Below the pieces are notes generated by a model, which saw only the letters and a program-made list of their open reading frames with translations, made no database searches and had not been told where the DNA came from. Source: Gammaproteobacteria bacterium (GTDB taxonomy: Bacteria; Pseudomonadota; Gammaproteobacteria; SZUA-229). From it: DNA of 32,200 bases. A program made the position numbers and the translations under genes. Positions within the stretch are counted from its first letter, which is position 1. The number at the start of each line of letters is the position of its first letter. The stretch is taken from contig JAPHSZ010000146.1 of NCBI GenBank assembly GCA_026196545.1, positions 1 through 32,200 on the forward strand. The letters run 5' to 3'. Below are positions 1 through 23,009 of this stretch, in pieces.

Positions 1-610
1 CCGGTTTAACAGTGACCTGATTGCCGGCTTCTGCAATCACTTTTCCAAATTCATTTTCTGCTTCAACCTGACCTTCAAGCACCGTTGACGTTACTGAACC
101 ATCCTCTTTTGCTTCAATAACTAACTCTGTACCACGAATACCAATTGTAGCTGTGGTGTTTGTAAAGCTAGCACGGACGTTTTTGTTCTTGTTTCTTGCC
201 CATAATTTACCCGAGAGCAAACTGAATACAGAACGGGATGCCTTTTTGAGGCTTTTTGCAATAACTGATTTTTCAAACCAGCCTGCATTTTTAGCTACGT
301 AATTAATTTCAAGTTTGGAGCTTCGCCCAACCTGTATGAGCGTTTCATCTGACATAACCAGGCTGGCTTTGCCATTGGCGCCAGTTCTAATCACATCACC
401 TGCATGCAGCAAGCTGCCCGTCTTTGCATAAATCCACTTGTTGCTTATGGCCTGGTAGATCTGCACCCTGCCCTGTTTTTTTACGACCTTTCCTTCAACA
501 GACGATTCTAATCTAGTGACTGTATTTGCATGAACTTGAGATGCTAAACAAAAAACAAAAATAATTAAATAGATAAAGCCGTTACGGTTAATTATGCTTT
601 TCAGAGACAT
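1..610 (-). CDS. FecR-domain protein, N-terminal part (runs off left edge)
   Basis: No stop occurs before the window edge, so the gene is partial at its 3' end. The visible part has a signal peptide ending near VHA, then a FecR-like domain. That domain has the segments LLHAGDVIRTGANGKASLVM, IGIRGTELVIEA and VLEGQVEAENEFGKVIAEAG. It is a close paralogue of the N-terminus encoded at 13720-10316, so the missing part may also carry TPRs and an outer-membrane barrel; this is inference. In-frame ATGs exist at 640, 625 and 610. I choose 610 because it aligns with the paralogue's start (MSLKSIINR against MFLLQCINR) and has GGAG nine bases upstream. The mature part is predicted periplasmic. It is divergent from the giant gene at 1118, with a 506-base region between them. 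FecR domains classically modulate sigma factors, but no sigma factor lies nearby and the domain directly follows a signal peptide, so that role is unlikely here. Confidence 0.85.
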   Translation of the reverse strand, partial: MSLKSIINRNGFIYLIIFVFCLASQVHANTVTRLESSVEGKVVKKQGRVQIYQAISNKWIYAKTGSLLHAGDVIRTGANGKASLVMSDETLIQVGRSSKLEINYVAKNAGWFEKSVIAKSLKKASRSVFSLLSGKLWARNKNKNVRASFTNTTATIGIRGTELVIEAKEDGSVTSTVLEGQVEAENEFGKVIAEAGNQVTVKP

Positions 611-701
611 TGATATGGACTCCATTTTTAATTTTTCCATTAATATTATTCCGCTTCTCATTATGTGTCATTTTGATATATGAAGATGATACTTGTGCCA
701 A

Positions 702-1117: not shown

Positions 1118-4100
1118 ATGCTTACCAATAATCGAAGTGCAAAAATTACAGCTCGTAAGTCATTAATACATTTACTTGCTCTACCTGTTCTGACAATAGT
1201 ATCTCTATTGCAAACTACCAGTACTATAGCAGCAACCCCTGGTTTGCCATTTACAGAAGACTTTAGTGATACGGCTTTAATGAATTCTAGTAAATCAGTA
1301 GCTAGCTGGGATACAAAAGCGCAGATTCTTGTACAGTCTTTTAGGAATGCTCGCTCAGGTGGATTAATTTCAAGCTCGGCTTCTGGTAAAAATATTTCAG
1401 ATGATGTGCTTTCAGCAGGCGCCATGGACATTGGTGATGTGGATGGTGATGGCGATCCTGATCTCGTATTATCTGACACATTCGTTGGTATTAATATATA
1501 TCTAAACAACGGTACAGATGAGCCTTTTCTCAATGCAGTTAAACAAACTATTACTCCGCCTGTTAGCGAAATTAATGGCGATATTCCAAGAGTAAACGAT
1601 CTAGCACTTGCCGATATAGATAATGATGGTGATCTGGACCTTATTACGGCTCAATCAGGTCAGTATGCAGATCCTACGGCTGTCAATTTACTTTATCTCA
1701 ATAATGGATCAGGCACCCCATTCGATGCTGTAACACCACAGAAGATAACAGAAGATTTGCATTCATCTCAGGCAGTGGTCGTTGATGATTTTAATGGTGA
1801 TGGGTATCTTGATGTTGTAATTGGAAATGATGAATGCTGTTCACAGACCTTAGCAAAAACAACACGACTGTATCTCAATAATGGTACTGCCAGCCCTTTT
1901 GCGGGAGTTACAGGGACTGATGTTTCAGCCGATGAAGATATTACAGAGGATGTGCATGCAGCGGATTTTAATGGGGATTCGCTGATAGATTTACTGGTTA
2001 TCAACGATACCGTGACGCACAAGGTCTATTTGAATGATGGAATAGGAGATCCATTTGATAGTGCTGTTGCGATTAATGTAGGTGCAGGCACTGACTCTTC
2101 TGATGCAGCTATAGGCGATATGGATGCTGACGGCGATATAGATATTGTGGTGGCTACATATGGAGCTGTAAATCTTTTATATTTGAATACTGGGCTGGCA
2201 GATCCGTTTACTGGCGTTGTGGGTATCAATATAACTGATGAGGTTGATTACACCTATTCAATTGATGTTGGGGATATAGATTCAGATGGCGATTTAGATG
2301 TCATTGCTGGAACATCTAGCGGCAAAACAAATAAAATATTTTTGAACGATGGCTTATCAATACCTGGTTTTGGTACAAGCGGATATCAAGTTTCTTCAGA
2401 TGCATTAGGTACATTAAAAGTATTGTTCCATGATCTGGATTTAGATGGTGATCTGGATTTGGTGGCGTCTAATTTTGATTCTGTCTCAAGATATTATCTA
2501 AATAATATCACAGTAAATCCATTTAATGATTCACCTGCTGTTGCTGTTTCAGATATTGAATCATATACATTTAGTATGCAATTAGTCGATCTGAATAAAG
2601 ACGGAAATCTTGATATTGTAGATAACAATCAAGTTTATTTAAATAATGGAACGTCCTTACCATTCGATAGCGTCACAGGCACAGCTTTGGGAGGAAGTGG
2701 TAATGCTATAGCTATTGGTGATATTAATGGTGATGGAAACATTGATATTGTACTCGGTAAAAGTGGGGCATCACAAAATATCTATTACCTAAATGATGGC
2801 AGTGGTGCAACATTCAGTAACAATCTGATAGGAAACTCAACATTTGATGCTAATGATACACAGCAGGTTGCGTTGGGTGATGTTGATAACGACGGTGATC
2901 TTGATCTGGTTACGGCAAATTATGCATTTACGTCGACTAATGGTGTTAGTACCAGACATAACAAACTTTATTTAAATAATGGCACTTCTGAGCCTTTTTT
3001 AAATGTTCAGGGAATAATTATTGAGCCAGCCGTAACTAATGGTTACGCTACTAAATCGGTTTATTTAGGGGATTTAAATAACGACGGTAATCTTGATTTG
3101 ATTTCAGGTGCTGCTCCATATAGTAGTAAAATATTTTTTGGTGACGGTAGTTCAGATCCTTTTAATCAGGCCACACCAATTAGTTTTGGTCTTTCATTTG
3201 AGTATATTAATGATATAGAAGCAGGTGATGTGGATGGTGATGGAGATATTGATTTTATTACCGTCGCATCAAGCCCATATCATAACCGATTATATATTAA
3301 TGATGGAAGCAGTACCCCTTTTGATGGTGCGACAGGTGAAGATATCAGCTCAGATGACAGTACAACCAATGGAATAGATTTAGCTGATGTTGATACAGAT
3401 GGTGATCTTGATATTATTCTTGCAAAAACTGGTAACAGTACAATTATCTTTAATAATGGGACTTCAAGTCCATTTAGTGACAAGAATGAGATTAACCTTT
3501 CAGAAGATTCGAATGTGTTCTTTTCTATAAAAACTGGTGACATTGATAAAGATGGTGATTTAGATATTGTTGTTGGTACAGGTGGTGTCGATAGTTATTA
3601 TTTAAATCAGTCTGCTTCAACACCCGTTCTGGCCGTTAAACAAAATGATTCAGGCGTAACAATTGATGCAACAAGAACTACAGCAATTTCAGATCTTAAT
3701 AATGATGGATATCCTGATTTAATAACTGGTAACGACGGTGTCAACAATTTATATATTAATAACCAGTCACTTAATCCATTCTTCGGGGTAACTCCAATAC
3801 CCATTACTTCAGACAATCACAATACTTACGGCATTGATGTTGGTGACCTTAATAATGATGGACACAATGATCTGGTCGCAGGCAATGTAAATGGCAATAG
3901 TTATTATTATTTAAATGATGGCAATGGTCTACCATTTGATAGCATTGCTAATGGTGAAGTTATTGGTACTGGAGCTACTATGTCTATGGGCATTGATATT
4001 GCCGATATTAACCAGGATGGCCGCTTAGATATAATTATCGGAAATAACCAGCTCGATACTTTACCCAATCAAATCTATATTAATAACGGCACTGGAACAC

Positions 4101-7100
4101 CATTTGCTGATGCGCCAATTTCAATAGATGCTAATGATTTCTACGGTACCTGGTCAATAGAAGCCGTAGATATTGACCTGGATGGTGATCTTGATATTGT
4201 CACCGGTAATTTTGGCACACGTAATCGTCTATATGTCAATGATGGTTCAAATACATTTGGAACTTCGTCAGGAATAGATATTACAACAGATCAGCATTTT
4301 ACAAGAGATGTTGCAATAGGTGATGTGAATGGTGATGGTAAGCCTGATATTGTTGTTGCAAACACATCTCAGGTTAATCGTTTATATTTGAATGATGGCG
4401 TTGGAAACCCGTTTGATACCATACCTGCCTCAAGCATCTCAACGGATGCCGATCCAACCTTTTCTGTTTCTTTATTTGATATTGATAAGGATGGTGACTT
4501 GGACCTGATTGCAGCTAATGATGGATCCAGTGTTACGTCACCATCTATGCTCTATTTAAATAATGGAACAAGCGATCCATTTGGTGGTGTCACTGGAATT
4601 ATTTTAGTGCCAGGTTCTTATCCAATCAATTCCTCATCAGTTGCTGATCTTGACAAGGACGGTTCAAATGACATTATACTTGGAGGTTTTAATGCAACGA
4701 ATTTATTAATTCGATCTCAGCCATTTGATAATGCAAAAGGCTTTGCAGAATCATTAGAGGTTGATACTGACACTGATATTCTATATGCCACCCTTTCACC
4801 AACTCAAACAGTACTTAATCATACTTCAATAAACTGGTATTTAAGCAACAATGGTGGTATGAATTTTTATAAAGTTCAGCCAGGTATTGAGTTTCAATTT
4901 CCAACATTCGGTGATGATCTGAGGTGGAAGGTGGAGATGAATTCATTGACATCACTATATTCACCATATGTTGATGCATTAACTATTACAGCTCGATATG
5001 ATCACGATCAGGATCTGGTCGCTGATGATGTTGATATTTGTGTTGGTACCTATGACCCCGATCAGCTTGATAATGATACTGACAATTGGGGTCACGCTTT
5101 TGATGGTGGTGATGCCTGTGATATCGATGATGATAATGATGGTATTGCTGATACAGAAGACCTATTTCCGTTTAATTATGACGAGTCAGCCGACACGGAT
5201 GGTGATTGTGGTGCGATTGACTACAACCTGACCACCTCGGGTAATGGTTGTGGTGATGCTTCCGATTTAGATATTGATGGTGATGGCATAGAATTTGATG
5301 GCGTAGTACTTACTGGTGTAGTTGATGAGTTCCTGTTTAATGTGGCGCCCAGTATTAGCGGTTCCCCATCGACAGATGCGACACCTGATTCTGAATATTC
5401 ATTTACTCCAGTTATATCAGATGGTGGAGACGGCCCATCACTCACGGCCAGTTTGACCTTCTCAGGCGGTACTGAAACAAACTTGCCGAACTGGTTAAGC
5501 TTCAATACCAGTACTGGTGCATTAACTGGTGTACCATCCAATGATGATTATGGTACTCTGAGTAGTATTGTCATTACGGTAAATGACAGTGTCCAAACAG
5601 CTACGCTTGCCTCGTTCAATATCAACGTGCTCGATACGCGCGCACCGGAGACCTTTGCTGTACCGGGTGGTGGCAATTTTAATGAAGATACCACGGTCAC
5701 TATTGCCTGCTTTGAAAATATCGGTTCTGGTTGCGCCAGCATTCATTACACCACAGATGATACCGCAGAACTTTCTGCTTTCACAACCGTGGCTAGCTCT
5801 TCTACAACAGTCACCATCCCCTCAAGTGCTGGCAGTGCTAATTTAAGATTTTATTCAAAAGACGCTAGCGGTAATGTTGAAAATGTAAAAACTGAAACAT
5901 ATAACTTTGATCTTGATTACCCTGTCGTTTCAATTACAACACCGTCAGATGGCTCGATCATCCCGGGTCAAGGTGGAACCGTTGATTCGATTTCGGGTAG
6001 TTCATCAGATGTCGGCACGGGTATTGTCGATGTCTCTATTCAAATCTCTGATGGCACAAATTCAGTCCAGACATTTGGTGGCAGTCTTGTTTCAGGGGCT
6101 GCTGCATGGCTTTCTGTTTCAGGTGCAGATGGTGTATGGAGTTATGACACCACGGGTTTGAACTGGACCAGTGATACGGTTTATACCATCACGGCGCGGG
6201 CTATCGATGGCGCTGGTAATACTATTACTACAAGCCATAATTTCACTTTCTACAACACAGCCGCAGCGACAACCACGCTGGATCTGGCGTTGACTAATAG
6301 CAGTATTCCAAATGGTGAAACTACCGATGCGACACTTACATTCAATCGCCTGAATGATTTGAGTGCTGACCTAACTGGCGTTCCACTGGAACTGCATATC
6401 ACTAAACCAGATGCAAGTATTGTGGTCGTACATGGCAATGCTAATTTCAGTGGTAATTTGACTCTGTCGCAACTGGGTGATGGCAGTGATATCAGTTTCA
6501 CTGTTCCTGGTGTTTATTCAATGGTCGCTAAATTTACCGATACCACAACGTATCCAAATCTGGCAGCCACATCTTCAAACCCCGTTAATTTGCTGGTAGG
6601 CACCTCGGCCGGTTATGCGCTGCTCGTGCAGGGTAAACTGTCCAATGAAGAAGGCCTTGAGTCGCACAACAAAACTGCAAATCGTATTTACGAAACATTA
6701 AAAGATCGCGGCTTTGTTGATCAGGATATTTATTACTACAACTACGATATTAACCAGACCGGAGTTGATGGTGTGCCGGATAAAGCAACCATTCAAACAA
6801 CCCTGGAAGGTTTGGCGACCGAGGTACAGAATCGCCCTGCCCCGGTTTACGTCATCATGGTTGATCATGGTGGTAAAGCGCTGGATGGATTAGAAGCCCG
6901 CTTCTTTATGGATACAGAAACTATCACGCCGACTGAACTGGATCTGTGGCTGACTAATCTTGAAAACAATATGGATGCACTGGATGTTCAGCTCAAGGTT
7001 GATAATAAACGAGTTGTCATTATCGGTGCCTGTTACTCCGGGGGATTTATTTCAACTGTTTCCGGCGACAATCGTATCATCATCACCAGTGCCACCGAAG

Positions 7101-9718
7101 ATGAGCAGTCGTTCAAAGGACCACTGGAAGATGACAATATCCGCGTTGGTGAATACTTCCTCGAAGAACTGTTCCTCGAATTGGGCAAAGGTAATGACTT
7201 ACGTAGCGCATTCAAAATCGCAACGGCAAAGACCGAGGCGTACACAGCAAGCGGTGCCGAATCGGCAAATAGTGATAATGCGTATTTAGACACCGCTATC
7301 CAGCATCCACTATTAAATGATGATGCGGATAGCACACCTACTAATGCCTTATTTGATAACTCCTCTGATGGCCAGCTGGCTACTGACATCGTGCTTGGTT
7401 TCGATCAGGGTTCGCTCACCAACGATGCGTTTGTGCCTGCGGATATTGATAGCATAAGTGGTACCCAGTATCTGGATAAAAATACCAGCGTTGCCGACTT
7501 AACGTTGTACGCCAATGATCCAAGCCAAGTGAATCAGGCCTATGTTGAAATTCGAGCACCATCAACAACATTGTCCAGTGCGGTAGAAAGCACAACTGAA
7601 CAGTTATCCAATAACTATATTCGTCGTGCCTATCTGCCACCTGTGACTTCAACCGATCCCTATACGCTTAATTATGCAGATTTTGTACAGGCGGGTAAGT
7701 ATGAGATATTCAGCTATGTCAATGATCGTTTCACCGGAGCCCTGTCACCTGCTAAGCGTTCAGTTATATACAAGAATCGTGCAGATACCGCGCCAACGGG
7801 CATAGATCTCGATGGTGTTAATGATGTGCCAAATGCATTTAATTTACTGACGCCTGTAGATAATGCAACTGGCCAGACTATTGTTGGTTTTATCTGGGAG
7901 GCATCAATAGATCCTGATCAGGATGCAGTCACCTACAGCTTCTACCTTGCTGATGATGCAACGTTTACGACCTTTACCCAGGACAATGGTAATGGAACCT
8001 GTACTCAGTTAACTGCGCCCTATTTGCAAGAAGAACTGGAAAGCCCCAGCACCTTTGTCGATGTGCAGGCTCTATTGTGTGACTCAAGAAGCTACGTCTG
8101 GAAAGTGGAAGCCGTTGACGTCTATGGTTTACGCACTGCCAGTACACCATTCACTTACAACACTAATAATACGAATGCCGATGTCGGTGTGATTGTCGCC
8201 ATGGTTAAGAGTGCAACCACCAACCAGCAACTCACCGCCGCGAATATCGCCAACGGTTTTGGTGAAACGGCAATTGCCTCTGCCAGTGTTCTCTATAATG
8301 GCAACTATGTTCTGTTTACTTCTAATACGGGTGTTGGCCAGACGATTACCGCAACACTAGGCAGCTACGCACCTAAAGATGTGGTGATAGGTAGTGTTGC
8401 CAGTGGTGAAACGGTCGAAATCCTGTTTGATATGACGCCGGACTTATCACTTGATACAGACAGTGATGGCGTTATTGATACAGCCGATAACTGCCCAACT
8501 GTTGCTAATGGAGTCGCTCAGGACAATCAACTTGATACCGATGCTGATGGTGTGGGTGATGCCTGTGACACCGATGATGATGGTGACGGTATGCCGGACA
8601 CCTATGAAAATATCTATGCCTTCCTTGATCCTCTCAATGCCGGTGATGCTGCTCTTGATCAGGACAATGACACAATCATAAACCTTCACGAATATCAGGA
8701 TGGCACCAATCCTGAAGTATTCGACATCATTCCTTCTGATGTTGATGGTGATGTTATTGATGATTCGGTAGATAACTGCGTCAACATCTATAACCCTGAC
8801 CAGCTTGATACTGATGGTGATACACAGGGTGATGCCTGTGATAACGATGATGATGCTGATGGTATGCCAGATGCATTTGAATTACTCTATGGATTGAATA
8901 CATTAGTGAATGATGCCATCGGTGATCCCGACCTTGATGGTGTTAGTAATCTCAATGAATACCTTGATGGCACTAATCCCAACGTGGTTAATGGAGATAC
9001 CGTTGACAGTGACAGCGATAGTATCACTGATGTCTATGATAATTGCCCAGCCATTGCCAATGCACCACAGCTTGATACTGATGAAGATGGAGCTGGTGAT
9101 GCCTGTGATAATGATATTGACAATGATAGTTTCGCAAATGCCAGTGATGCATTTCCGTTAGATATTACTGAATGGTTAGACACTGATCTAGATACAATTG
9201 GTAACAATGCCGATTTCGATGATGATGGTGACGGCACACCTGACACCACTGATGCCTTCCCTCTGGATAGTACTGAGGATATAGATACCGACCGTGATGG
9301 TATAGGAAACAATGCAGACACCGATGATGATGGTGATGGCATACTTGATACCAATGACGCTTTCCCGCTTAATAGTGCTGAAGATATAGATACCGACCGT
9401 GATGGCATAGGAAACAATGCAGACACCGATGATGACAACGATGGTATGAGTGACGAGTTCGAAATACTCTACTCACTCAATCCGCTGGATGCCAGCGATG
9501 CGAATAGTGACAGCGATAATGATGGCAAGAGCAACCTGGAAGAATTTCAGGCCGGCACCAGTCCAAAAGCTGCAAACATAGATACAACCGATACGAGTGT
9601 AACAACTAGCAGCGGAACCAGTAGCAGTAGTAGCGGCGTATTACACCCACTACTATTACTGGCACTGTTAATCAATATCGGACTGTTTGGAAGGCGTTAC
9701 TCAAACTCAAAGTCTTAA
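1118..9718 (+). CDS. Giant secreted FG-GAP/VCBS propeller protein with C13-like peptidase domain (copy A)
   Basis: This 2866-residue exported protein starts at an ATG nine bases after AAGGA. A signal peptide ends near residue 39, and the mature N-terminus contains PGLPFTEDF. Residues about 100-1205 hold 21 FG-GAP/VCBS repeats (DxDxDGDxDL ... LYLNNGTxxPF), which bind Ca2+ and build seven-bladed propellers. Next come a Cys-containing Asp-rich segment (about 1293-1405), a putative-Ig (He_PIG-like) domain (1408-1505), a chitobiase-C-like domain (1505-1605), an Ig-like domain (1605-1712) and an MG2-like beta domain (1717-1828). A legumain-like C13 peptidase domain follows (about 1829-2057), with His1917 in VDHGG and Cys1972 in GACYSGGF. 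Ig- and FN3-like domains and a regulatory-CarboxypepD-like domain extend to about 2442, then thrombospondin-3-like Asp-rich repeats to about 2824. The end is Ser-rich, then hydrophobic (2841-2857), then Arg-Arg, like a C-terminal sorting or anchoring signal. It is probably a cell-surface or secreted Ca2+-dependent peptidase or adhesin; the substrate is unknown. Confidence 0.88.
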   Translation: MLTNNRSAKITARKSLIHLLALPVLTIVSLLQTTSTIAATPGLPFTEDFSDTALMNSSKSVASWDTKAQILVQSFRNARSGGLISSSASGKNISDDVLSAGAMDIGDVDGDGDPDLVLSDTFVGINIYLNNGTDEPFLNAVKQTITPPVSEINGDIPRVNDLALADIDNDGDLDLITAQSGQYADPTAVNLLYLNNGSGTPFDAVTPQKITEDLHSSQAVVVDDFNGDGYLDVVIGNDECCSQTLAKTTRLYLNNGTASPFAGVTGTDVSADEDITEDVHAADFNGDSLIDLLVINDTVTHKVYLNDGIGDPFDSAVAINVGAGTDSSDAAIGDMDADGDIDIVVATYGAVNLLYLNTGLADPFTGVVGINITDEVDYTYSIDVGDIDSDGDLDVIAGTSSGKTNKIFLNDGLSIPGFGTSGYQVSSDALGTLKVLFHDLDLDGDLDLVASNFDSVSRYYLNNITVNPFNDSPAVAVSDIESYTFSMQLVDLNKDGNLDIVDNNQVYLNNGTSLPFDSVTGTALGGSGNAIAIGDINGDGNIDIVLGKSGASQNIYYLNDGSGATFSNNLIGNSTFDANDTQQVALGDVDNDGDLDLVTANYAFTSTNGVSTRHNKLYLNNGTSEPFLNVQGIIIEPAVTNGYATKSVYLGDLNNDGNLDLISGAAPYSSKIFFGDGSSDPFNQATPISFGLSFEYINDIEAGDVDGDGDIDFITVASSPYHNRLYINDGSSTPFDGATGEDISSDDSTTNGIDLADVDTDGDLDIILAKTGNSTIIFNNGTSSPFSDKNEINLSEDSNVFFSIKTGDIDKDGDLDIVVGTGGVDSYYLNQSASTPVLAVKQNDSGVTIDATRTTAISDLNNDGYPDLITGNDGVNNLYINNQSLNPFFGVTPIPITSDNHNTYGIDVGDLNNDGHNDLVAGNVNGNSYYYLNDGNGLPFDSIANGEVIGTGATMSMGIDIADINQDGRLDIIIGNNQLDTLPNQIYINNGTGTPFADAPISIDANDFYGTWSIEAVDIDLDGDLDIVTGNFGTRNRLYVNDGSNTFGTSSGIDITTDQHFTRDVAIGDVNGDGKPDIVVANTSQVNRLYLNDGVGNPFDTIPASSISTDADPTFSVSLFDIDKDGDLDLIAANDGSSVTSPSMLYLNNGTSDPFGGVTGIILVPGSYPINSSSVADLDKDGSNDIILGGFNATNLLIRSQPFDNAKGFAESLEVDTDTDILYATLSPTQTVLNHTSINWYLSNNGGMNFYKVQPGIEFQFPTFGDDLRWKVEMNSLTSLYSPYVDALTITARYDHDQDLVADDVDICVGTYDPDQLDNDTDNWGHAFDGGDACDIDDDNDGIADTEDLFPFNYDESADTDGDCGAIDYNLTTSGNGCGDASDLDIDGDGIEFDGVVLTGVVDEFLFNVAPSISGSPSTDATPDSEYSFTPVISDGGDGPSLTASLTFSGGTETNLPNWLSFNTSTGALTGVPSNDDYGTLSSIVITVNDSVQTATLASFNINVLDTRAPETFAVPGGGNFNEDTTVTIACFENIGSGCASIHYTTDDTAELSAFTTVASSSTTVTIPSSAGSANLRFYSKDASGNVENVKTETYNFDLDYPVVSITTPSDGSIIPGQGGTVDSISGSSSDVGTGIVDVSIQISDGTNSVQTFGGSLVSGAAAWLSVSGADGVWSYDTTGLNWTSDTVYTITARAIDGAGNTITTSHNFTFYNTAAATTTLDLALTNSSIPNGETTDATLTFNRLNDLSADLTGVPLELHITKPDASIVVVHGNANFSGNLTLSQLGDGSDISFTVPGVYSMVAKFTDTTTYPNLAATSSNPVNLLVGTSAGYALLVQGKLSNEEGLESHNKTANRIYETLKDRGFVDQDIYYYNYDINQTGVDGVPDKATIQTTLEGLATEVQNRPAPVYVIMVDHGGKALDGLEARFFMDTETITPTELDLWLTNLENNMDALDVQLKVDNKRVVIIGACYSGGFISTVSGDNRIIITSATEDEQSFKGPLEDDNIRVGEYFLEELFLELGKGNDLRSAFKIATAKTEAYTASGAESANSDNAYLDTAIQHPLLNDDADSTPTNALFDNSSDGQLATDIVLGFDQGSLTNDAFVPADIDSISGTQYLDKNTSVADLTLYANDPSQVNQAYVEIRAPSTTLSSAVESTTEQLSNNYIRRAYLPPVTSTDPYTLNYADFVQAGKYEIFSYVNDRFTGALSPAKRSVIYKNRADTAPTGIDLDGVNDVPNAFNLLTPVDNATGQTIVGFIWEASIDPDQDAVTYSFYLADDATFTTFTQDNGNGTCTQLTAPYLQEELESPSTFVDVQALLCDSRSYVWKVEAVDVYGLRTASTPFTYNTNNTNADVGVIVAMVKSATTNQQLTAANIANGFGETAIASASVLYNGNYVLFTSNTGVGQTITATLGSYAPKDVVIGSVASGETVEILFDMTPDLSLDTDSDGVIDTADNCPTVANGVAQDNQLDTDADGVGDACDTDDDGDGMPDTYENIYAFLDPLNAGDAALDQDNDTIINLHEYQDGTNPEVFDIIPSDVDGDVIDDSVDNCVNIYNPDQLDTDGDTQGDACDNDDDADGMPDAFELLYGLNTLVNDAIGDPDLDGVSNLNEYLDGTNPNVVNGDTVDSDSDSITDVYDNCPAIANAPQLDTDEDGAGDACDNDIDNDSFANASDAFPLDITEWLDTDLDTIGNNADFDDDGDGTPDTTDAFPLDSTEDIDTDRDGIGNNADTDDDGDGILDTNDAFPLNSAEDIDTDRDGIGNNADTDDDNDGMSDEFEILYSLNPLDASDANSDSDNDGKSNLEEFQAGTSPKAANIDTTDTSVTTSSGTSSSSSGVLHPLLLLALLINIGLFGRRYSNSKS
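9146..9460 (+). repeat. Three 105-base in-frame repeats in giant gene A
   Basis: Three 35-residue units each begin DAFPL and contain IGNNAD and DDD. Units two and three are nearly identical in DNA, including the stretch GATATAGATACCGACCGTGA at both. Each is a thrombospondin-3-like calcium-binding unit. The near identity suggests recent duplication, and loss or gain of a unit would keep the reading frame. Confidence 0.85.
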
Positions 9719-10315: not shown

Positions 10316-13300
10316 TTAGAAGTTAACCGTTGCTGATAGCAGGTACTCACGTTCCGGGTTTCTTCCTGTGATCACAAAATTGTCAGTGACCCAGTTAAAC
10401 TCTTCATCTAGAATGTTTTTAACTTTGAGCGATATTTCTCCAGCTTTATCGTCAAACTCATACGTGATATCTGCGTCTAGAATATTAATATCTGGTGTGT
10501 CATGGCCATCCTCAAAATTAATAACTCTGTAAGTATTTTTAATGCCAATAGAAAAACCATTAGACTGTTGGTTGTGTAACGCAATGACAAGCGATTGATC
10601 ATCACGATTTAATGACGGCTCACTTTGAGTTTCTATAGATGCGTACTTGTAGCTTGAACTCAGACCTGTTGTCATGGTGAGCAGTGTTTCATAGGTTAGT
10701 TCTACGCCGTCAGTTTGACCTTCAAGTCCAATAGTATTGGGTGGACTTTCTTTATCGAGGCTAAATACCCCAAATGAAACCAGGCCTTTTTCAGTTTCAT
10801 ATTCCCAAACCAGATCAATCTCTTCAATAATCGTTCCTTCATCAGTGTTCCTAAAAATTGGTATGCCGGCGATACCAACTGGGTCTAGTCTTGAGGTTAC
10901 AAAAGGTAGCACGTATTTAAATGCAGATAGTCTTAAAGTATTATCTGTGCTGGCATTCCAAATAAGGCCAAGGCGGGGTCCTATTTCTTCTACATCCCAG
11001 GTAGTATTAGAGAACGCATCTGCATTTTCCATTTTATCAAAATAAACTGCTGCCTCTATCATTATGGCTTCATTAAATTTCCAGCTATCGTGTATATAAG
11101 CGCTGATAAAGCTAATATCATGATCATACGATGGCATTGGATTGTCAAAGGCTATCAGAGCATCAATAACAACAGGAATTTCTGCTCCTCTATCTACAGC
11201 ATTTGCACCAACAATTAAATTTTCCTGCATAGTGTTGCCCGAAAAACCTAATAGCCCAGTAATAATCTGATGATTATTTACTTTATTCATGTACTGGAAT
11301 TGTAGTTGAGTATAAGGACGTTCGAATTCAGCAGTATTTGTATCATCTAAATATAAAGCAGGGTCAACAACTAAAGTTGAATCTGTCGTTGTTATATAAT
11401 CTCCTGTATTGTTTTGGTATGTTCCATAGAATAGTAAATTACTGCTAGGTGTTAGTTTATGGTTGTAACCAATTTCAAATGCACCTAGCTCAAGATTCAA
11501 TTCATCTTCAGGTGAAGACGGACTATCAAACTCATAGCGCTGATCAGCTCTATCACGCTGTTCAAAATCAGAAAATAATGCAGAGATTAAGTACCCGTTT
11601 TCTTCTGAAGGTTGCCACTTGCCTATAAATGCTGCGGTTTTTGTTTTTTCGGAATTTGTATCGCGCCAGCCGTCTGTTTTGTCACTGAATACACCGAGGT
11701 TGTAAGCAAAATTACTGTCCGGATCAGAGCCATAAATAATTATATCTCCACCTTTAGTTCCATTATTGCCCCCTCGTGCTGTTATTTGTCCACCAATATC
11801 AGGCTGCTCAAAAAACGAAGTGTAATCATTAAAGGTATTAAAAGTATTTACATTAGCAGGTTGTAACATGCGTGCGAGCAGTGCTTCTGAGCCTGCGGGA
11901 TATGACCGGTCTTCCTGATTTCCTAGTACACCGGCATAGAACAAATGTGCGCTATAGTTTGTGTAATCAGATTTGATAGCAGATACTGCTTTCTTTTCTG
12001 CAAGGCGAGTTAAGCCTAACTTATCGTACAATATTGATAAATCTACATTGCGAACGGCTAAATCCTGATCAAGAAGAAAACGTGAACGATAAATAGCACG
12101 ATTATCGTTCAGAGCAATAGCTTGATTAAGCGCCTCAATAGCCTCACCAGAACGGTTCAAATCCCTCAAGATAATCGACTTGTAAAATATAGGCGTTGGG
12201 TCTTTTTTATCTAGCAAAGCGGCGTGCTCAAACATATCTAATGCCTTATCATAACGCCCTACCTGATGTAGCATTTTTCCCCAGTAACTCACAAATAATG
12301 AACGCTGTGGGTCAAGCGCTACAGCACTGGTAATTTCTTCCAGTGCACGGTCTGCATTGCCCTGGCGCATCTCAATAATACCCAGGCCCATATGTGATTC
12401 AGCCATACCTGCATCACTTTCTAAAGCCATATTAAAAGCGTTTCTGGCATCCTCCAGTTCACGCAATGACAGTAATACAAAACCGGCAAGATTGTTGATC
12501 ATGGCATTTCTGGGTTCTTTTTTCTGCGCCACCAATAATGTATTCATTGCCTGCTGGGTATAACCGCTGCCAAACTGCAATTGCGCCAATATGACAGAGG
12601 CAAGAATATTGTCTGGATCAATACGTAATGCGGCGTTAGCAGACTGGATGGCTTCTTCTAGTTCAAAACGTGACTGCTGTACATACGCTAATACCACATA
12701 ATTAAATGAGTTTTCAGGCTCTAGCTCTACAGATTTTTTAGCAGCCTCTACAGCAGTATCTTTATGTTCTGTCATGAGGCCAGCAGTAGCGAGTGAGCGT
12801 AATAATATTCCACTGCCGGGAATCGCTTTTTTTAGACGAGTTAGTTTTTTGTATGCACCTTGTGGTTGTCTGTTAAATATATCAAGTACAGCATCAACTA
12901 ACTGTAATGAATTGTCATTAGGAGTGAGTTCTAATTTCTGTTTGACTATTTGAGCAGCTGTTGAATAGTCTTCCTGTTCTAGTAGCTCTATTAAATCTTT
13001 TGAAATGTTAATAGTTGAAAAATCATCAGCATTGATCAATGGTGGAATTACAAGAGTCCACTGAACCGCATTTTCAGGATTTAACAGAATAGATTTTTGA
13101 GGTGCTTGTCCGGGCTGAGCTATAACCTGATTACCCGCCTCAGCAATGACTGTTCCAAATTCATTTTGTGCTTCAATTGTTCCTTCTAGTACTACAGAGT
13201 TCATAGCCCCATCTTTTTTGGCTTCAATGATAAGTTCAGTACCGCGAATACCTATTGAAGCAGTGGCGAGTTTAAAACGGGCGCGTACATTTTTATTTTT

Positions 13301-13720
13301 ATTTCGTGCCCATAATTTACCAGAGAGCAAACTAAATACAGATCGGGAGGCCTTTTTGAGGCTTTTTGCAATAACTGATTTCTCAAACCAGCCTGCATTT
13401 TTAGCTACGTGATTAATTTCAAGTTTGGTATTTCGCCCAACCTGCATGATGGTTTCATCAGACATCACCAGGCTGGCTTTACCATTGGTGCCGGTTCTAA
13501 TGGTATCTCCAGCGTGCAGCAAAGTCCCCGGCTTGGCATAAACCCATTTATTGCTAATAGCTTGATGAACCTGTACCCGTCCCTGTTTTTGTACAACTTT
13601 ACCCTCTGCGGATGAATCTAACCTTACATTGGTACTTGCATGTACTCCGGATGCCGCACAGAAAATAAAAACCGACAGGTAAACGAAGACTTTTCTATTT
13701 ATACATTGCAGTAAAAACAT
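10316..13720 (-). CDS. FecR-TPR-outer-membrane beta-barrel protein
   Basis: This is 1134 residues from ATG 13720. An in-frame TTG at 13756 would add twelve Lys/Asn-rich residues, but AAGGAG lies just before ATG 13720 and only that start gives a normal signal peptide (ending near VHA). A FecR-like domain follows (about 30-200: LLHAGDTIRTGTNGKASLVM, IGIRGTELIIEA). TPR-like helix pairs occupy about 230-600 (for example the segments around SVELEP, ALRIDP and AVALDP). The C-terminal 520 residues are rich in alternating beta strands and aromatics and end in YLLSATVNF, the terminal Phe typical of outer-membrane barrels. The order of periplasmic TPR then barrel recalls exporters such as BcsC and PgaA, but the barrel is larger and TonB-receptor-like. 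No TonB box or plug was recognised. It is divergent from giant gene B, so a role in exporting or sensing that protein is plausible but unproven. Confidence 0.85.
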   Translation of the reverse strand: MFLLQCINRKVFVYLSVFIFCAASGVHASTNVRLDSSAEGKVVQKQGRVQVHQAISNKWVYAKPGTLLHAGDTIRTGTNGKASLVMSDETIMQVGRNTKLEINHVAKNAGWFEKSVIAKSLKKASRSVFSLLSGKLWARNKNKNVRARFKLATASIGIRGTELIIEAKKDGAMNSVVLEGTIEAQNEFGTVIAEAGNQVIAQPGQAPQKSILLNPENAVQWTLVIPPLINADDFSTINISKDLIELLEQEDYSTAAQIVKQKLELTPNDNSLQLVDAVLDIFNRQPQGAYKKLTRLKKAIPGSGILLRSLATAGLMTEHKDTAVEAAKKSVELEPENSFNYVVLAYVQQSRFELEEAIQSANAALRIDPDNILASVILAQLQFGSGYTQQAMNTLLVAQKKEPRNAMINNLAGFVLLSLRELEDARNAFNMALESDAGMAESHMGLGIIEMRQGNADRALEEITSAVALDPQRSLFVSYWGKMLHQVGRYDKALDMFEHAALLDKKDPTPIFYKSIILRDLNRSGEAIEALNQAIALNDNRAIYRSRFLLDQDLAVRNVDLSILYDKLGLTRLAEKKAVSAIKSDYTNYSAHLFYAGVLGNQEDRSYPAGSEALLARMLQPANVNTFNTFNDYTSFFEQPDIGGQITARGGNNGTKGGDIIIYGSDPDSNFAYNLGVFSDKTDGWRDTNSEKTKTAAFIGKWQPSEENGYLISALFSDFEQRDRADQRYEFDSPSSPEDELNLELGAFEIGYNHKLTPSSNLLFYGTYQNNTGDYITTTDSTLVVDPALYLDDTNTAEFERPYTQLQFQYMNKVNNHQIITGLLGFSGNTMQENLIVGANAVDRGAEIPVVIDALIAFDNPMPSYDHDISFISAYIHDSWKFNEAIMIEAAVYFDKMENADAFSNTTWDVEEIGPRLGLIWNASTDNTLRLSAFKYVLPFVTSRLDPVGIAGIPIFRNTDEGTIIEEIDLVWEYETEKGLVSFGVFSLDKESPPNTIGLEGQTDGVELTYETLLTMTTGLSSSYKYASIETQSEPSLNRDDQSLVIALHNQQSNGFSIGIKNTYRVINFEDGHDTPDINILDADITYEFDDKAGEISLKVKNILDEEFNWVTDNFVITGRNPEREYLLSATVNF

Positions 13721-13783
13721 TTTTAACTCCTTTTTTCCTTTTTTGTTATTTTTCAATAATGAAAGTACATCACTATTTCATTC

Positions 13784-20200: not shown

Positions 20201-23009
20201 AGACGATAACATCCGTGTCGGTGAGTACTTCCTCGAAGAGCTGTTCCTTGAGCTGGGTGAAGGTAACAACTTGCGTGACGCTTTCAAAGTCGCTACAGTC
20301 AAAACTGAAACCTACACCAAGGAAGTCAGTGGTGACACGTCAACCAACAGTGACAATGAGTTCCTCGATACCGCCGTGCAGCATCCATTACTGGATGATG
20401 ATGCCGATGGTTTAGGCACCAACGCCCTGTTTGATAGCTCATCAGACGGCCAGAGCGCACTTGATGTGGTGCTTGGTTTTGATCAGGGGTCATTGACCAA
20501 CGATGCCTTCATTCCTGCTGCTGTTGAGAGTGTGAGTGGCACCCAGTATCTGGATAATGCTACCAGCAATGCGGTGCTAACGATGTATGCCAATGACCCT
20601 TCTCAGGTCAATCAGGCTTACGTTGAGATCCGTACACCAGGAACGGTACTTATTGATGCGGTAGAAAGCACCACTGAGCAGTTATCCAGTGACTTCATTC
20701 GCCGTGCTTATACTCCCCCAGCAGCACCGGGTGAGCCGTATACGCTCGACTACACTGCATTTACTGAAGCGGGTAAATACGAGATATTCAGTTATGTGAA
20801 TGATCGTTTCACGGGTGCATTATCATCAGCTAAACGCTCAATCATTTACAAGAACCGTGAAGATGGCGGTGATCCCAATGATCCACCTACGCCATTTAAC
20901 CTGCAAACTCCAACTAATGGTGACACAGGCCCATATATCACCGCCTTCACCTGGGATGCATCGACCGATCCTGATCAGGATGCGGTGACCTACAGCTTCT
21001 ACTTGGCGGATGACACCAGCTATACCACCTTCACCAAAGATACTGGCAGTGGCTGTACCCAGCAAAATGCGCCTTATGTCCAGGAAGAACTCACCAGCCC
21101 AAGCACCTTCGTTGATGCCGTAGCGGGACTCTGTGATGGCCAGAGCTACGTCTGGAAAGTTGTCGCGGTCGATCCTTATGGATTAAAGGCCGTTAGCGCT
21201 AACTTCAGCTATACCGTTAGTAATCACCTCAATGCCGATCTTGGTGTGATCGTGGCCATGGTCAAGAGCGCCACCACCAATGCACAGTTAACGGCAGCTA
21301 ATGTTATTAATAGTTTTGGAGAAACAGCTACCCCAGCAGAAAGTGTTTTGTATAACGGTAACTATGTGTTAATTACAGGTAACACGGGTACAGGCCATAC
21401 CATTACTACAAACAAGACTGGATATTCAGAAACCGAGGTAAGCATACCTAATATCAACAGCGGTCAGACGGTTGAGATCCTGATTGACATGCCACCAGTG
21501 ACTGTTGATAGTGATAGTGATACTGTTTATGACAACGTAGATAACTGTCCGGTCGATGTTAATGTCAGTCAGGCTGATTTAGATAATGATGGTGTCGGTG
21601 ATGCTTGTGATGATGACATCGACGGTGATGGCATGCCCAATAATTATGAAGATAGTTATGTCTTCCTCGATCCATTAGTTGCGAGTGATGCAGGTCTGGA
21701 TGAAGATGGTGACACCCTCAGTAATCTTACCGAATATCGTGATGGTACCAATCCTGGCGTATTCAATGTAATTCCATCAGATATTGATGGCGACACCATT
21801 GATGATACGATCGATAACTGCGTGGATATATCTAACCAGGATCAGGCTGATTATGATGGTGATGGCCTGGGCAATGTCTGTGATTATGATGACGATGATG
21901 ATGGCATGCCCGACAGTTATGAACAGGACTACGCCTTCCTAAATACACTCGATGCAGCAGATGCCTCTTTAGATGAAGATGGTGACAGCATGAGTAACCT
22001 TGTTGAGTATCTTGGCGGTACCGATCCTGGCGTATTCAATCTACCTGATACGGATGGTGATGGTATTGACGATACCGTTGATAACTGCCTGTATATTTAC
22101 AACCAGGATCAGGCTGATTATGACAGTGATGGCATAGGCAATGTCTGTGATCATGACGATGATGATGATGGCATGCCGGACAGTTTTGAAGAGAGCTACG
22201 CCTTCCTAAATACACTCGATGCAGCAGATGCCTCTTTAGATGAGGATAGCGATACCATGAGTAATCTTGAAGAATATTTGGGTGGTACTGACCCCAGTGT
22301 GTTTGATCTACCTGATACAGATGGTGATGGTGTTTATGATATATTTGATAACTGTCCAGATGTATATAACAACAAACAAAAAGATTACGACAGTGATGGC
22401 ATCGGTGATAAGTGTGATGATGATGATGACAACGACGGTATGTCAGATGCCTTTGAAGATCAGTACAAGAGCAATGGTCTGGATCGGCTCGATGAGACCG
22501 ATGCCTCTGAAAACATAGATGGTGATGCCTTTACCAATCTTGAAGAGTTTCTGTTTGGTACGAACCCGGCAGTCACCAGCCTTGATAACGATAGTGATGG
22601 GTTACCTGACACCTTCGAGCTTGCAGTAGGCACTGATTACACCATCGCTGACAGTGATGGTGATAACTTAACCGACTATGAAGAAATTAACTACGACGGT
22701 GATCTTTACAGTTATACTCCCGGCAGTGACACTGATCCCAACAATGTTGATACCGATGGTGACACATTCCAGGATGATATAGACGTAAATCCGTTAATAC
22801 CAGATGTTATTGGTGATATTGCTCCAGTATCCACACCTGATAGCACTGTTAATGCAGCAGACTATTTGCTTATGATACGGATTGTACAAGGTGAGATAAC
22901 ACCAACAGCTGAACAACTGCAAAATGGTGATTTATACCCTGTTGGCTCACCTGACGGTGTGATTAATATACAGGATCTTATCTTGTTGCGACAGATGGTC
23001 ATGCCGTAG
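14217..23009 (+). CDS. Giant secreted FG-GAP/VCBS propeller protein with C13-like peptidase and dockerin domains (copy B)
   Basis: This 2930-residue paralogue of the product of 1118-9718 has an ATG eight bases after AAGGA and a signal peptide ending at AYA, near residue 38. Residues about 95-1182 hold 21 FG-GAP/VCBS repeats, the same number as copy A. Then come the Cys-containing Asp-rich segment (about 1270-1385), Ig-like domains (1379-1680), an MG2-like domain (1688-1800) and the C13-like peptidase domain (about 1800-2038). The peptidase has His1908 in VDHGG and Cys1963 in GACYSGGF. Compared with copy A it has an insertion before the His strand (NGVSDPQLLQDLIPNG). Ig/FN3/CarboxypepD-like domains reach about 2428, followed by thrombospondin-3-like repeats. 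The last 65 residues (2866-2930) form a dockerin-like pair of Ca2+ loops (GDIAPVSTPDSTVNAAD and GDLYPVGSPDGVINIQD) in place of copy A's hydrophobic tail. B is probably held at the surface by a cohesin-type partner, while A may be membrane-anchored; this is inference. Confidence 0.88.
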   Translation: MIFTTRSFGILPCKLSTLILGLPVLFITIALYQSSAYANEPGLPFTEEFIDADLRAVGTTANWDTLDQFVKLGKRSPKKLGLTADTSTGMDVSSNLYSTFAVKLADINGDGTNDIITGNYVYIRDPDTFDSYASIIHLSDATNTIRSIDTGDIDQDGDLDIVFGAQGINLLYFNNGTDTPFEGVSKTYITSDNDYTVSIQAIDVNGDGWLDVVVGNEYTNDRLYINNGTSNPFDGVTAQTFGEPSSARTNAVMVADIDYDGNNDIVSVYNNGQTGTNVKYILNNGSSTEPFLGQTSKDISNITNGELQNIDLGDVNGDKYIDIVVSGEIDSGVPSYLFINNSANTPGTPFDTSTSAISISSDTDRSVGIHLLDADDDGDLDVYVANYSARGKLYVNDGSNEPFGASLEGIDISNDSIVAHSSGIGDIDNDGDIDIVVGANGIDRLYLNNSSSSAFDGIADDISTDADQSRGLAYGDVDNDGDIDIITSGLSTQAKLYKNNGTNKPFDGVSATIITDAHSGAYLVYLADINHDGRLDLINGGASGQLSEIFFNNGSSTPYTAANMQTFGVSTFVLDIATGDVNNDGKTDLIQGTRLYLNDGTSTPFSSGGIDIDSGGFDKALGDVDNDGDLDLVEATLSGAWLYLNDGDSTPYSNGKIEIGTGLQSNSIELYDLNQDGYLDAIIGSFDDYTRVVLNDGTSTPFDGNAMYLGTNTASTDIKLGDFNLDGIIDIASVNEDGKRVEVLYPDVSDYTFVNSWRVPTNFASDEAISGYKLAVADFSNDGKPDIVVAANGINRIYYNQSASAGYSSITRSQVASSTGAYRSLDVTAADFNNDGALDVAFANYDTSTYPNTVVLNNKTSSPFGGSYPATIPYTLQYLDTDKHSSWGIDSGDITGDGYPDIVVANTSAASRVYTNDGTGLFGSTSGYNLGSGTTARDVKLADLNGDGRLDAVLANYSTTLDNQIFLNNGSSYALSVTPISVYTGDAHYSMTVELADIDNDDDIDIMVGNNGSNYTYLNNGTGTSFYKWEFYSGAPGTDTQNSYGIAIGDVNGDGWPDAVVGNYGTVNKLYINDTLSNPFTNAGIDITTDADYTLDILLEDIDNDGDLDVIVFNASGVNKYYLNNGTATPFSDAVGIELTTSSKTSYGAVARDFDNDGVKDFVVANYTLSNDLFRSSPYALNKNKVISEEVDTDTDILKATLNGYVPLDWNNSVDFYMSNNGGTQFFQVQRGVEFTFPTQGDDLRWKAELHSLTPLRSPLIGDVVIDAKVDHDLDFATDDIDLCIGTADPDQLDNDSDAVPGVSTGPDDGGDACDIDDDNDGVGDTEDLFPFNSAEQGDYDGDCGAIDYNLPTSGDGCGDNSDTDIDNDGIPNVSDTFMFNVAPTISGTPGTVATPENTYTFTPAISDGGDGPTLSVSVTADGGSLPAWLTFNPATGVLTGVPSNDNYGTISNIVLTVSDGTEQVSLPAFNIKVIDTRAPVTNASPKEGVYNSDISVYLSCSDGIGSECANIYYSTDGGMQYNLALDYAIIDIPASSHETILKYYSVDNADTPNYEVEQTQVYTFDNGLPVVTITSPVADSILTSVNSINGSSSDNADFDTGIKKIELQITDGINSVQVTGGSLVEGAPAWILVSDDIGAWSYDWSYNTEGLWTSSEVPYTITARATDYAGNTATTSVTFSYFSGTPATTTLDLSLTNTSVPVGQTTDAFLTLTRLNDLNADLTGIPLELHITKPDGSPVDPLIIDEANYTGNLTLSDLGDGVDVIFDQAGVYSMVAKFTDTATYPNLAASTSNPISLLVGTSAGYAIIIQGKLSNEEGLDSHNKTANRIYETFKDRGFAEEDIFYFNYDTNQTGVDGLPDKATIQKLIEGSANGVSDPQLLQDLIPNGLAAEIDDRPAPVYLVMVDHGGKAVDELEARFFMNDETILPSELNLWLGSLEANMDALDAQLKIDNNRIIIIGACYSGGFISGITGDGRIVITSATGDEPSYKGPIEDDNIRVGEYFLEELFLELGEGNNLRDAFKVATVKTETYTKEVSGDTSTNSDNEFLDTAVQHPLLDDDADGLGTNALFDSSSDGQSALDVVLGFDQGSLTNDAFIPAAVESVSGTQYLDNATSNAVLTMYANDPSQVNQAYVEIRTPGTVLIDAVESTTEQLSSDFIRRAYTPPAAPGEPYTLDYTAFTEAGKYEIFSYVNDRFTGALSSAKRSIIYKNREDGGDPNDPPTPFNLQTPTNGDTGPYITAFTWDASTDPDQDAVTYSFYLADDTSYTTFTKDTGSGCTQQNAPYVQEELTSPSTFVDAVAGLCDGQSYVWKVVAVDPYGLKAVSANFSYTVSNHLNADLGVIVAMVKSATTNAQLTAANVINSFGETATPAESVLYNGNYVLITGNTGTGHTITTNKTGYSETEVSIPNINSGQTVEILIDMPPVTVDSDSDTVYDNVDNCPVDVNVSQADLDNDGVGDACDDDIDGDGMPNNYEDSYVFLDPLVASDAGLDEDGDTLSNLTEYRDGTNPGVFNVIPSDIDGDTIDDTIDNCVDISNQDQADYDGDGLGNVCDYDDDDDGMPDSYEQDYAFLNTLDAADASLDEDGDSMSNLVEYLGGTDPGVFNLPDTDGDGIDDTVDNCLYIYNQDQADYDSDGIGNVCDHDDDDDGMPDSFEESYAFLNTLDAADASLDEDSDTMSNLEEYLGGTDPSVFDLPDTDGDGVYDIFDNCPDVYNNKQKDYDSDGIGDKCDDDDDNDGMSDAFEDQYKSNGLDRLDETDASENIDGDAFTNLEEFLFGTNPAVTSLDNDSDGLPDTFELAVGTDYTIADSDGDNLTDYEEINYDGDLYSYTPGSDTDPNNVDTDGDTFQDDIDVNPLIPDVIGDIAPVSTPDSTVNAADYLLMIRIVQGEITPTAEQLQNGDLYPVGSPDGVINIQDLILLRQMVMP
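21505..22600 (+). repeat. Four in-frame repeats of about 267-273 bases in giant gene B
   Basis: Modules of about 89-91 residues recur, each with a DNC motif, a Ca2+-binding CD-DDDD-DGMP(D/N) or similar segment, and a SNLxEYxxGT(D/N)P end. The two central copies share long near-identical DNA, for example the bases encoding YAFLNTLDAADASLDE at about 21930 and 22200. They are thrombospondin-3-like. Such repeats could recombine to change protein length in frame. Confidence 0.8.

What the first reader, a model, noticed from the sequence alone, without database searches (positions are those of the whole stretch)
6601..7290. Legumain-like C13 peptidase domain buried inside giant protein A
Residues 1829-2057 carry VDHGG (His1917) and GACYSGGF (Cys1972), then ITSA and SF in the order seen in clan CD C13 peptidases. 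It sits between beta-domains rather than at an end, which would suit controlled self-cleavage or transpeptidation at the surface (C13 includes the GPI transamidase). The catalytic pair is intact in both copies.
Basis: partly seen in the sequence, partly recalled or inferred. Interest (0 to 1): 0.72.

Follow-up and report, generated by a model that had tools for sequence, protein, structure and literature searches.

The report
Legumain-like protease inside giant surface proteins
A gammaproteobacterium encodes two very large exported proteins that each carry an intact-looking relative of the protein-cutting enzyme legumain in their middle, part of an apparently undescribed family of bacterial surface proteases with interchangeable binding heads and anchors that may cut themselves at one conserved asparagine.

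Summary
Protein A residues 1829-2098 (window 6602-7411) and the same region of protein B are Peptidase_C13 domains. Both pass Pfam's cut-off, and predicted models of each match human legumain (Z 23.5 and 24.1) ahead of GPI transamidase, metacaspases and caspases. The His/Cys pair is intact in both and in every relative checked, except second tandem copies in one genome that have lost both residues. The C13 block and the Ig-like domain after it are the best conserved parts of the giants. Across 29 'giant' C13 domains from several bacterial classes, the catalytic module stays while heads (FG-GAP, RCC1, leucine-rich, cadherin) and tails (GlyGly-like, dockerin-like, SLH, RTX) change. Legumain's S1 arginine (Arg44) is never present; instead a Lys/Arg sits where caspases carry theirs, with an invariant Glu. 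The variable linker after the domain holds one conserved Asn (A: Asn2102; 22 of 29), a candidate self-cleavage site. Each giant sits beside a FecR-TPR-barrel gene. Best reading: an exported surface protease that may process itself. Activity, specificity and self-cleavage are untested here. New variant of a known kind.

The parts
1118..9718 (+). Protein A, 2866 aa: signal peptide-like N-terminus, FG-GAP propeller repeats, He_PIG and Ig-like domains, C13 module, post-Ig, FN3/regulatory-like domains, TSP3 stalk, GlyGly-like hydrophobic/basic tail
6263..6601 (+). Ig-like domain before C13 (A 1716-1828), no Pfam match
   Evidence: beta-only in model m5438f65b4cde; no Pfam hit; conserved in Gammaproteobacteria and more weakly in the Deltaproteobacteria relatives
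6602..7411 (+). C13 peptidase domain of A (residues 1829-2098)
   Evidence: PF01650 over cut-off; legumain Z 23.5, rmsd 2.5 over 214 residues
6866..6868 (+). catalytic His1917 (VDHGG)
   Evidence: aligned to legumain DHG; kept in every non-degenerate domain
7031..7033 (+). catalytic Cys1972 (GACYSGG)
   Evidence: aligned to legumain EACESG; kept in every non-degenerate domain
7115..7117 (+). Lys2000 after the conserved aromatic; Lys/Arg in all 29 giants; inferred position of the caspase S1 arginine
   Evidence: caspase/legumain S1 description in PMC4357240; equivalence inferred from sequence
7151..7153 (+). Glu2012, at the position of legumain S1 Asp231
   Evidence: profile alignment; invariant in 29 giants
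7421..7423 (+). Asn2102, conserved linker Asn: candidate autocleavage site
   Evidence: 22 of 29 relatives against 22 of 377 at other linker positions; linker pLDDT below 50
7424..7783 (+). Ig-like domain following C13 (post-Ig)
   Evidence: conserved with C13; strands in model
8378..9607 (+). TSP type-3 repeat stalk of A
   Evidence: PF02412, 7 stretches
9608..9715 (+). Ser/Gly-rich, hydrophobic, basic tail of A (GlyGly-CTERM-like, below model)
   Evidence: sequence; no TIGR03501 hit; rhombosortase in genome
14217..23009 (+). Protein B, 2930 aa: same architecture, ends in a dockerin-like segment
19623..20489 (+). C13 peptidase domain of B (His1908, Cys1963)
   Evidence: model m3f8007dcaf53 pLDDT 86, pTM 0.89; legumain Z 24.1
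20499..20501 (+). Asn2095 of B, equivalent of A Asn2102
22812..23006 (+). dockerin-like C-terminus of B
   Evidence: PF00404 16.0 bits, below cut-off 22.9
10316..13756 (-). FecR-TPR-beta-barrel protein beside B, divergent
   Evidence: PF04773 and TPR; orthologues beside giants in G001, G003 and L010; the barrel is read from sequence, not modelled
2..661 (-). N-terminal 220 aa of a second FecR-TPR-barrel protein beside A, cut by the contig end (continues on G000:C177)
   Evidence: FecR hit; 75.6% identical to P0003; contigs share 17 bases

Best explanation
A and B are exported, surface-tethered proteases. The conserved core is a C13 (legumain-type) cysteine peptidase with a His-Cys pair, followed by an Ig-like domain. 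The N-terminal beta-propellers act as a binding head and the TSP3 stalk with its tail as a tether. After export (most likely by type II secretion, with a rhombosortase-type tail for A), the C13 domain probably cuts at the conserved linker Asn (A Asn2102, B Asn2095), on its own chain or a neighbour's. That would mature the enzyme and separate the head-plus-protease half from the stalk, and the enzyme would then act on proteins that the head binds. Shown here by computation: family, fold, dyad placement, purifying selection, changing heads and tails, linker Asn conservation. Inferred: export route, activity, P1 preference (Asn/Asp/Glu through Lys2000 and Glu2012) and self-cleavage.
For: C13 identity: PF01650 over cut-off in A and B and hit by all 13 aligned domains; the best 27 profile hits in the PDB are all legumains/asparaginyl endopeptidases or GPI transamidases, best E 1.4e-8; legumain is the best structural match for both copies. 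Dyad: 33 of 33 non-degenerate domains keep DHG and CxS, while three second tandem copies in G253 have lost both residues, which suggests that catalysis is what is kept elsewhere. Selection: C13 is 75% identical between A and B against 36% for the FG-GAP part; B versus G001 dN 0.061, dS 1.0. Exchangeable heads and tails around the same core, and an 843-aa minimal form with no propeller (L025). Linker Asn in 22 of 29 against 5.8% at other linker positions. Rhombosortase over cut-off and a gsp operon in the genome.
Against: No biochemical evidence. The linker Asn is missing or shifted in 7 of 29, including L025 and L065, and the counts are from related sequences, not independent events. Legumain's S1 Arg44 is replaced in all 29, so cleavage after Asn is not assured. 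A's tail does not reach the GlyGly-CTERM model. The role of the FecR-TPR-barrel partner is unknown.
Confidence: 0.45

Rival explanations
1. The C13 domain is an active peptidase that acts only in trans on other surface or environmental proteins; the giant is not processed by it, and the linker Asn is structural (for example a cap of the post-Ig domain).
For: Heads vary widely while the protease stays, and a minimal form has no head to release; the Asn is absent in members that keep the dyad, such as L025 and L065.
Against: The Asn is the most conserved residue of an otherwise variable, low-confidence linker.
Confidence: 0.33
2. The domain is a transpeptidase (like GPI transamidase or plant peptide ligases): it opens the chain at the linker Asn and joins the head to an amine on the cell surface or matrix.
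For: The GPI transamidase catalytic subunit and plant ligases are among the close structural matches, and the GPI transamidase profile match is second best; the conserved Asn lies where such a site is expected.
Against: Fold and dyad do not tell hydrolase from ligase. Tails already suggest their own anchoring routes, and rhombosortase is common where this C13 is absent (47 of 54 against 2 of 54), so it is not needed for tail anchoring.
Confidence: 0.12
3. The domain is a structural or regulatory pseudo-protease.
For: Degenerate second copies exist in G253; clan CD contains known pseudoenzymes (general knowledge).
Against: DHG and CxS are kept in 33 of 33 non-degenerate domains at down to about 25% identity, with strong purifying selection.
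Confidence: 0.07

Closest known systems
Legumain / asparaginyl endopeptidase (MEROPS C13)
   Same: Fold (Z 23.5-24.1), His148/Cys189 equivalents, S1 His45 and Ser216 equivalents, acidic residue at the Asp231 position; legumain also self-cleaves after an Asn C-terminal to its catalytic domain (Asn323, PMC4357240)
   Different: Arg44 replaced by Ser/Ala/Asp in all 29 giants, Glu187 by Gly, Asp231 by Glu, Lys/Arg on the L5 loop; no LSAM prodomain recognised; internal in a giant exported protein
GPI transamidase catalytic subunit (PIG-K/GPI8)
   Same: C13 family; Z 21.8-22.4; second-best profile hit in the PDB
   Different: GPI8 works in a membrane complex on other proteins' C-termini; the partners were not looked for here
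Standalone bacterial C13 proteins (about 250-770 aa, one with MORN-like repeats)
   Same: C13 domain with SHG and SACYSG motifs (G051, G290)
   Different: Match mainly the middle of the giant profile (positions about 62-215) and lack the giant-protein architecture
Gingipain-type surface proteases (C25) with Ig domain
   Same: Clan CD protease followed by an Ig-like domain, exported to the surface (general knowledge)
   Different: Different family; did not appear among the rows shown for these models, which does not exclude similarity
GlyGly-CTERM/rhombosortase surface proteases such as VesB
   Same: Tripartite tail and a rhombosortase plus type II secretion operon in the genome; surface protease (PMC6219818)
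   Different: Serine protease; A's tail does not reach the TIGR03501 model

Membership tests
Peptidase family C13 (PF01650) | Profile match above the curated cut-off | tested here: met
   27.8 and 27.0 bits against 22.8; 36.6 for A's domain alone
Peptidase family C13 (PF01650) | Caspase-haemoglobinase fold, closest to legumain | tested here: met
   Predicted models only: Z 23.5, rmsd 2.5 over 214 residues; Z 24.1, rmsd 2.7 over 229
Peptidase family C13 (PF01650) | His then Cys dyad in HG and C-x-S motifs | tested here: met
   H1917/C1972 and H1908/C1963 aligned to legumain
Peptidase family C13 (PF01650) | Third catalytic residue (legumain Asn42) | tested here: inconclusive
   The alignments shown start just after this position; the nearest residue in A would be Leu1847; no coordinates
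Peptidase family C13 (PF01650) | Peptidase or transamidase activity | not testable with these tools
   needs protein
Legumain-type asparaginyl endopeptidase | S1 pocket Arg44-His45-Ser216-Asp231 | tested here: not met
   S-H-S-E in A and B; Arg44 equivalent never Arg in 36 domains; pocket definition from PMC4357240
GPI transamidase | Membrane complex with partner subunits | not tested
   not searched
GlyGly-CTERM (TIGR03501) substrate | C-terminal tail over model cut-off | tested here: not met
   No hit for A's tail; 7.7 bits against 15.5 for the G001 tail
GlyGly-CTERM (TIGR03501) substrate | Rhombosortase and type II secretion in the genome | tested here: met
   141.7 bits against cut-off 84; gspD 599.8 against 351.35
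Dockerin type I (tail of B) | PF00404 over cut-off, with a cohesin partner | tested here: not met
   16.0 against 22.9; the only cohesin-like hit 22.7 against 24.1

The most novel reading that the evidence does not exclude
These giants are a separate C13 subfamily that opens its own chain at the conserved linker Asn through a caspase-like S1 arrangement (Lys/Arg on the L5 loop plus Glu) and passes the head to an amine acceptor: a self-contained bacterial transpeptidase that attaches or sheds binding heads at the cell surface.
Probability: 0.12. Interest if true: 0.85.

Novelty: new variant of a known kind. Interest (0 to 1): 0.6.

Why it matters
C13 enzymes have been studied mainly in eukaryotes (legumain, GPI transamidase); bacterial members are little studied. 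If the reading is right, several bacterial lineages display legumain-like proteases on giant surface proteins with interchangeable heads and anchors, with a changed specificity pocket and a likely self-cleavage site. This would be a new route for surface processing or attachment, a possible source of new peptide ligases, and a comparison point for how the caspase and legumain S1 pockets evolved. The conserved Asn and the Lys2000/Glu2012 pair make it directly testable.

Tried and rejected
Chance motif: rejected by HMM scores against 500 shuffles. C13 as the missing transamidase of the rhombosortase/GlyGly system: rejected as a general role, since rhombosortase is over cut-off in 47 of 54 genomes of the taxon family and this C13 in only 2. 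Phage or plasmid cargo: no relative in plasmids or viral contigs. Defence system: no PADLOC hit for the C13 domain; the partner has only weak TPR hits. A real cohesin-dockerin pair: both partners are below cut-off. Direct phmmer of A's domain against the PDB found nothing useful; the profiles did. The structural lists for both models contained legumains, GPI transamidases, plant metacaspases and caspases; other clan CD families did not appear among the 50 rows, which does not exclude them. Literature searches for bacterial C13 surface proteins found nothing specific; subscription papers are mostly not held, so a description elsewhere cannot be excluded. Model coordinates were not in the Python box, so dyad and S1 distances could not be measured.

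Full report
Observation. Protein A (window 1118-9718, 2866 aa) holds VDHGG with His1917 and GACYSGGF with Cys1972, then ITSA and SF, as reported. Pfam's Peptidase_C13 model passes its cut-off in both A and B and in A's domain alone (36.6 bits against 22.8). An HMM built only from distant relatives scores A and B near 250 bits, the best of 500 shuffles 8. These are the only two C13 matches in this genome.

Fold. AlphaFold2 models of A's module (mean pLDDT 81) and of B's domain alone (pLDDT 86, pTM 0.89) match human legumain best (Z 23.5, rmsd 2.5 over 214 residues; Z 24.1, rmsd 2.7 over 229), then GPI transamidase (21.8, 22.4), plant metacaspases (19.8, 20.5) and caspases (18.8, 18.6). A profile of 13 domains finds legumains and GPI transamidases first in the PDB, and aligns His1917 with legumain's DHG histidine and Cys1972 with its catalytic cysteine.

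Active site. Of 36 aligned domains, 33 keep DHG and CxS; the other three are second tandem copies in genome G253 that have lost both residues (GNG, DAP). In the 29 domains of the giant subfamily (leaving out the G253 set and L027), legumain's Arg44 is Ser, Ala or Asp, His45 and Ser216 are kept, Asp231 is Glu, and a Lys or Arg follows the (usually aromatic) residue at the Tyr217 position of the L5 loop. The legumain pocket (Arg44, His45, Ser216, Asp231) and the remark that Arg44 overlies the caspase L5 arginine come from PMC4357240. That the Lys/Arg here takes the caspase position is inferred from sequence (caspase S-W-R, general knowledge, against S-F/Y-K/R), not measured. The likely P1 preference is then Asn, Asp or Glu, but Arg/Lys is not excluded.

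Linker Asn. Directly after the domain comes a conserved HPLLDDNGDG-GSN stretch that resembles a calcium-binding DxNxDG loop (degenerate in A), then a Leu-Gly, then a linker with pLDDT below 50 in the model. Eight residues after that Gly, 22 of 29 giants have Asn (A Asn2102, B Asn2095), against 22 Asn in 377 other linker positions. Legumain also cuts itself after an Asn beyond its catalytic domain (PMC4357240). This is circumstantial evidence for self-processing; the sequences are related and the count is not a probability.

Architecture and relatives. Close relatives lie in Gammaproteobacteria MAGs (64-65% identity, L009-L011) and a Deltaproteobacteria MAG (34-35%, L012, L013). Wider scans found matches in 5 of 369 genomes of the class (including weaker and standalone forms), and the giant form in seven genomes of other classes, with up to six copies. 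Heads include FG-GAP, RCC1 and cadherin/Big domains by Pfam, and leucine-rich, BNR-like and BACON-like repeats by eye; tails include GlyGly-like, dockerin-like, SLH and RTX repeats. L025 is an 843-aa form with no propeller. The tail types use different export or anchoring systems (general knowledge), so the protease core is the constant part. Within the giants, C13 and post-Ig change least (A-B 75% identity against 36% for FG-GAP; B-G001 dN 0.061, dS 1.0). G001's single copy is A-like on both sides but B-like across pre-Ig to FN3, which suggests gene conversion.

Neighbours and export. A and B each stand divergently beside a FecR-TPR-barrel protein: the window holds one whole (10316-13756) and the first 220 aa of another (2-661), whose remainder is on contig C177. 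The family is found in 3 of 54 genomes of the taxon family, always beside a giant; in G003 the giant is cut by the contig end before the C13 region. L010 has the same pair. The genome has rhombosortase and a gsp operon, with the rhombosortase gene between gspF and gspG. A's tail looks like a GlyGly-CTERM but does not reach the model. In Vibrio cholerae such tails lead, through rhombosortase and type II secretion, to surface display (PMC6219818).

Conclusion. C13 membership and catalytic competence by sequence are well supported (about 0.9). An exported surface protease is likely. Self-cleavage at the linker Asn is the most interesting testable step (about 0.45 as part of the best explanation); transpeptidation is possible but has no direct evidence. 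I found no description of this subfamily in the papers held.

Noticed in passing
window 2-661(-) and 10316-13756(-); G000:C177 (L038): Duplicated divergent two-gene unit: FecR-TPR-barrel protein beside a C13 giant. The barrel family occurs in 3 of 54 family genomes, always next to a giant; its function is unknown.
   Followed up: partly
G000:C28 (L039) 5689-6324(-): The rhombosortase gene lies on the opposite strand inside the type II secretion operon, between gspF and gspG.
   Followed up: no
L022, L030, L026 (G253): BNR-like propeller proteins with two tandem C13 domains, the second having lost both catalytic residues (GNG, DAP).
   Followed up: partly
L014 4567-14796(-) compared with A and B: The G001 giant is a mosaic of A-like and B-like stretches, B-like across the C13 module, as if by gene conversion.
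   Followed up: partly
L018 1349-2212(+), G000:C124: A 287-aa protein with a weak cohesin match (22.7 bits, cut-off 24.1), TSP3-like repeats and a GlyGly tail; possible partner of B's dockerin-like end.
   Followed up: partly
L013 8802-13589(+): A protein with an N-terminal filamentous-haemagglutinin-like region, TPR and a CHAT-like C-terminus (another clan CD fold) lies next to the deltaproteobacterial C13 giant; assignment by eye.
   Followed up: no
window 7304-7342 and relatives: A conserved LDDNGDG-GSN stretch after the C13 domain looks like a calcium-binding loop.
   Followed up: no
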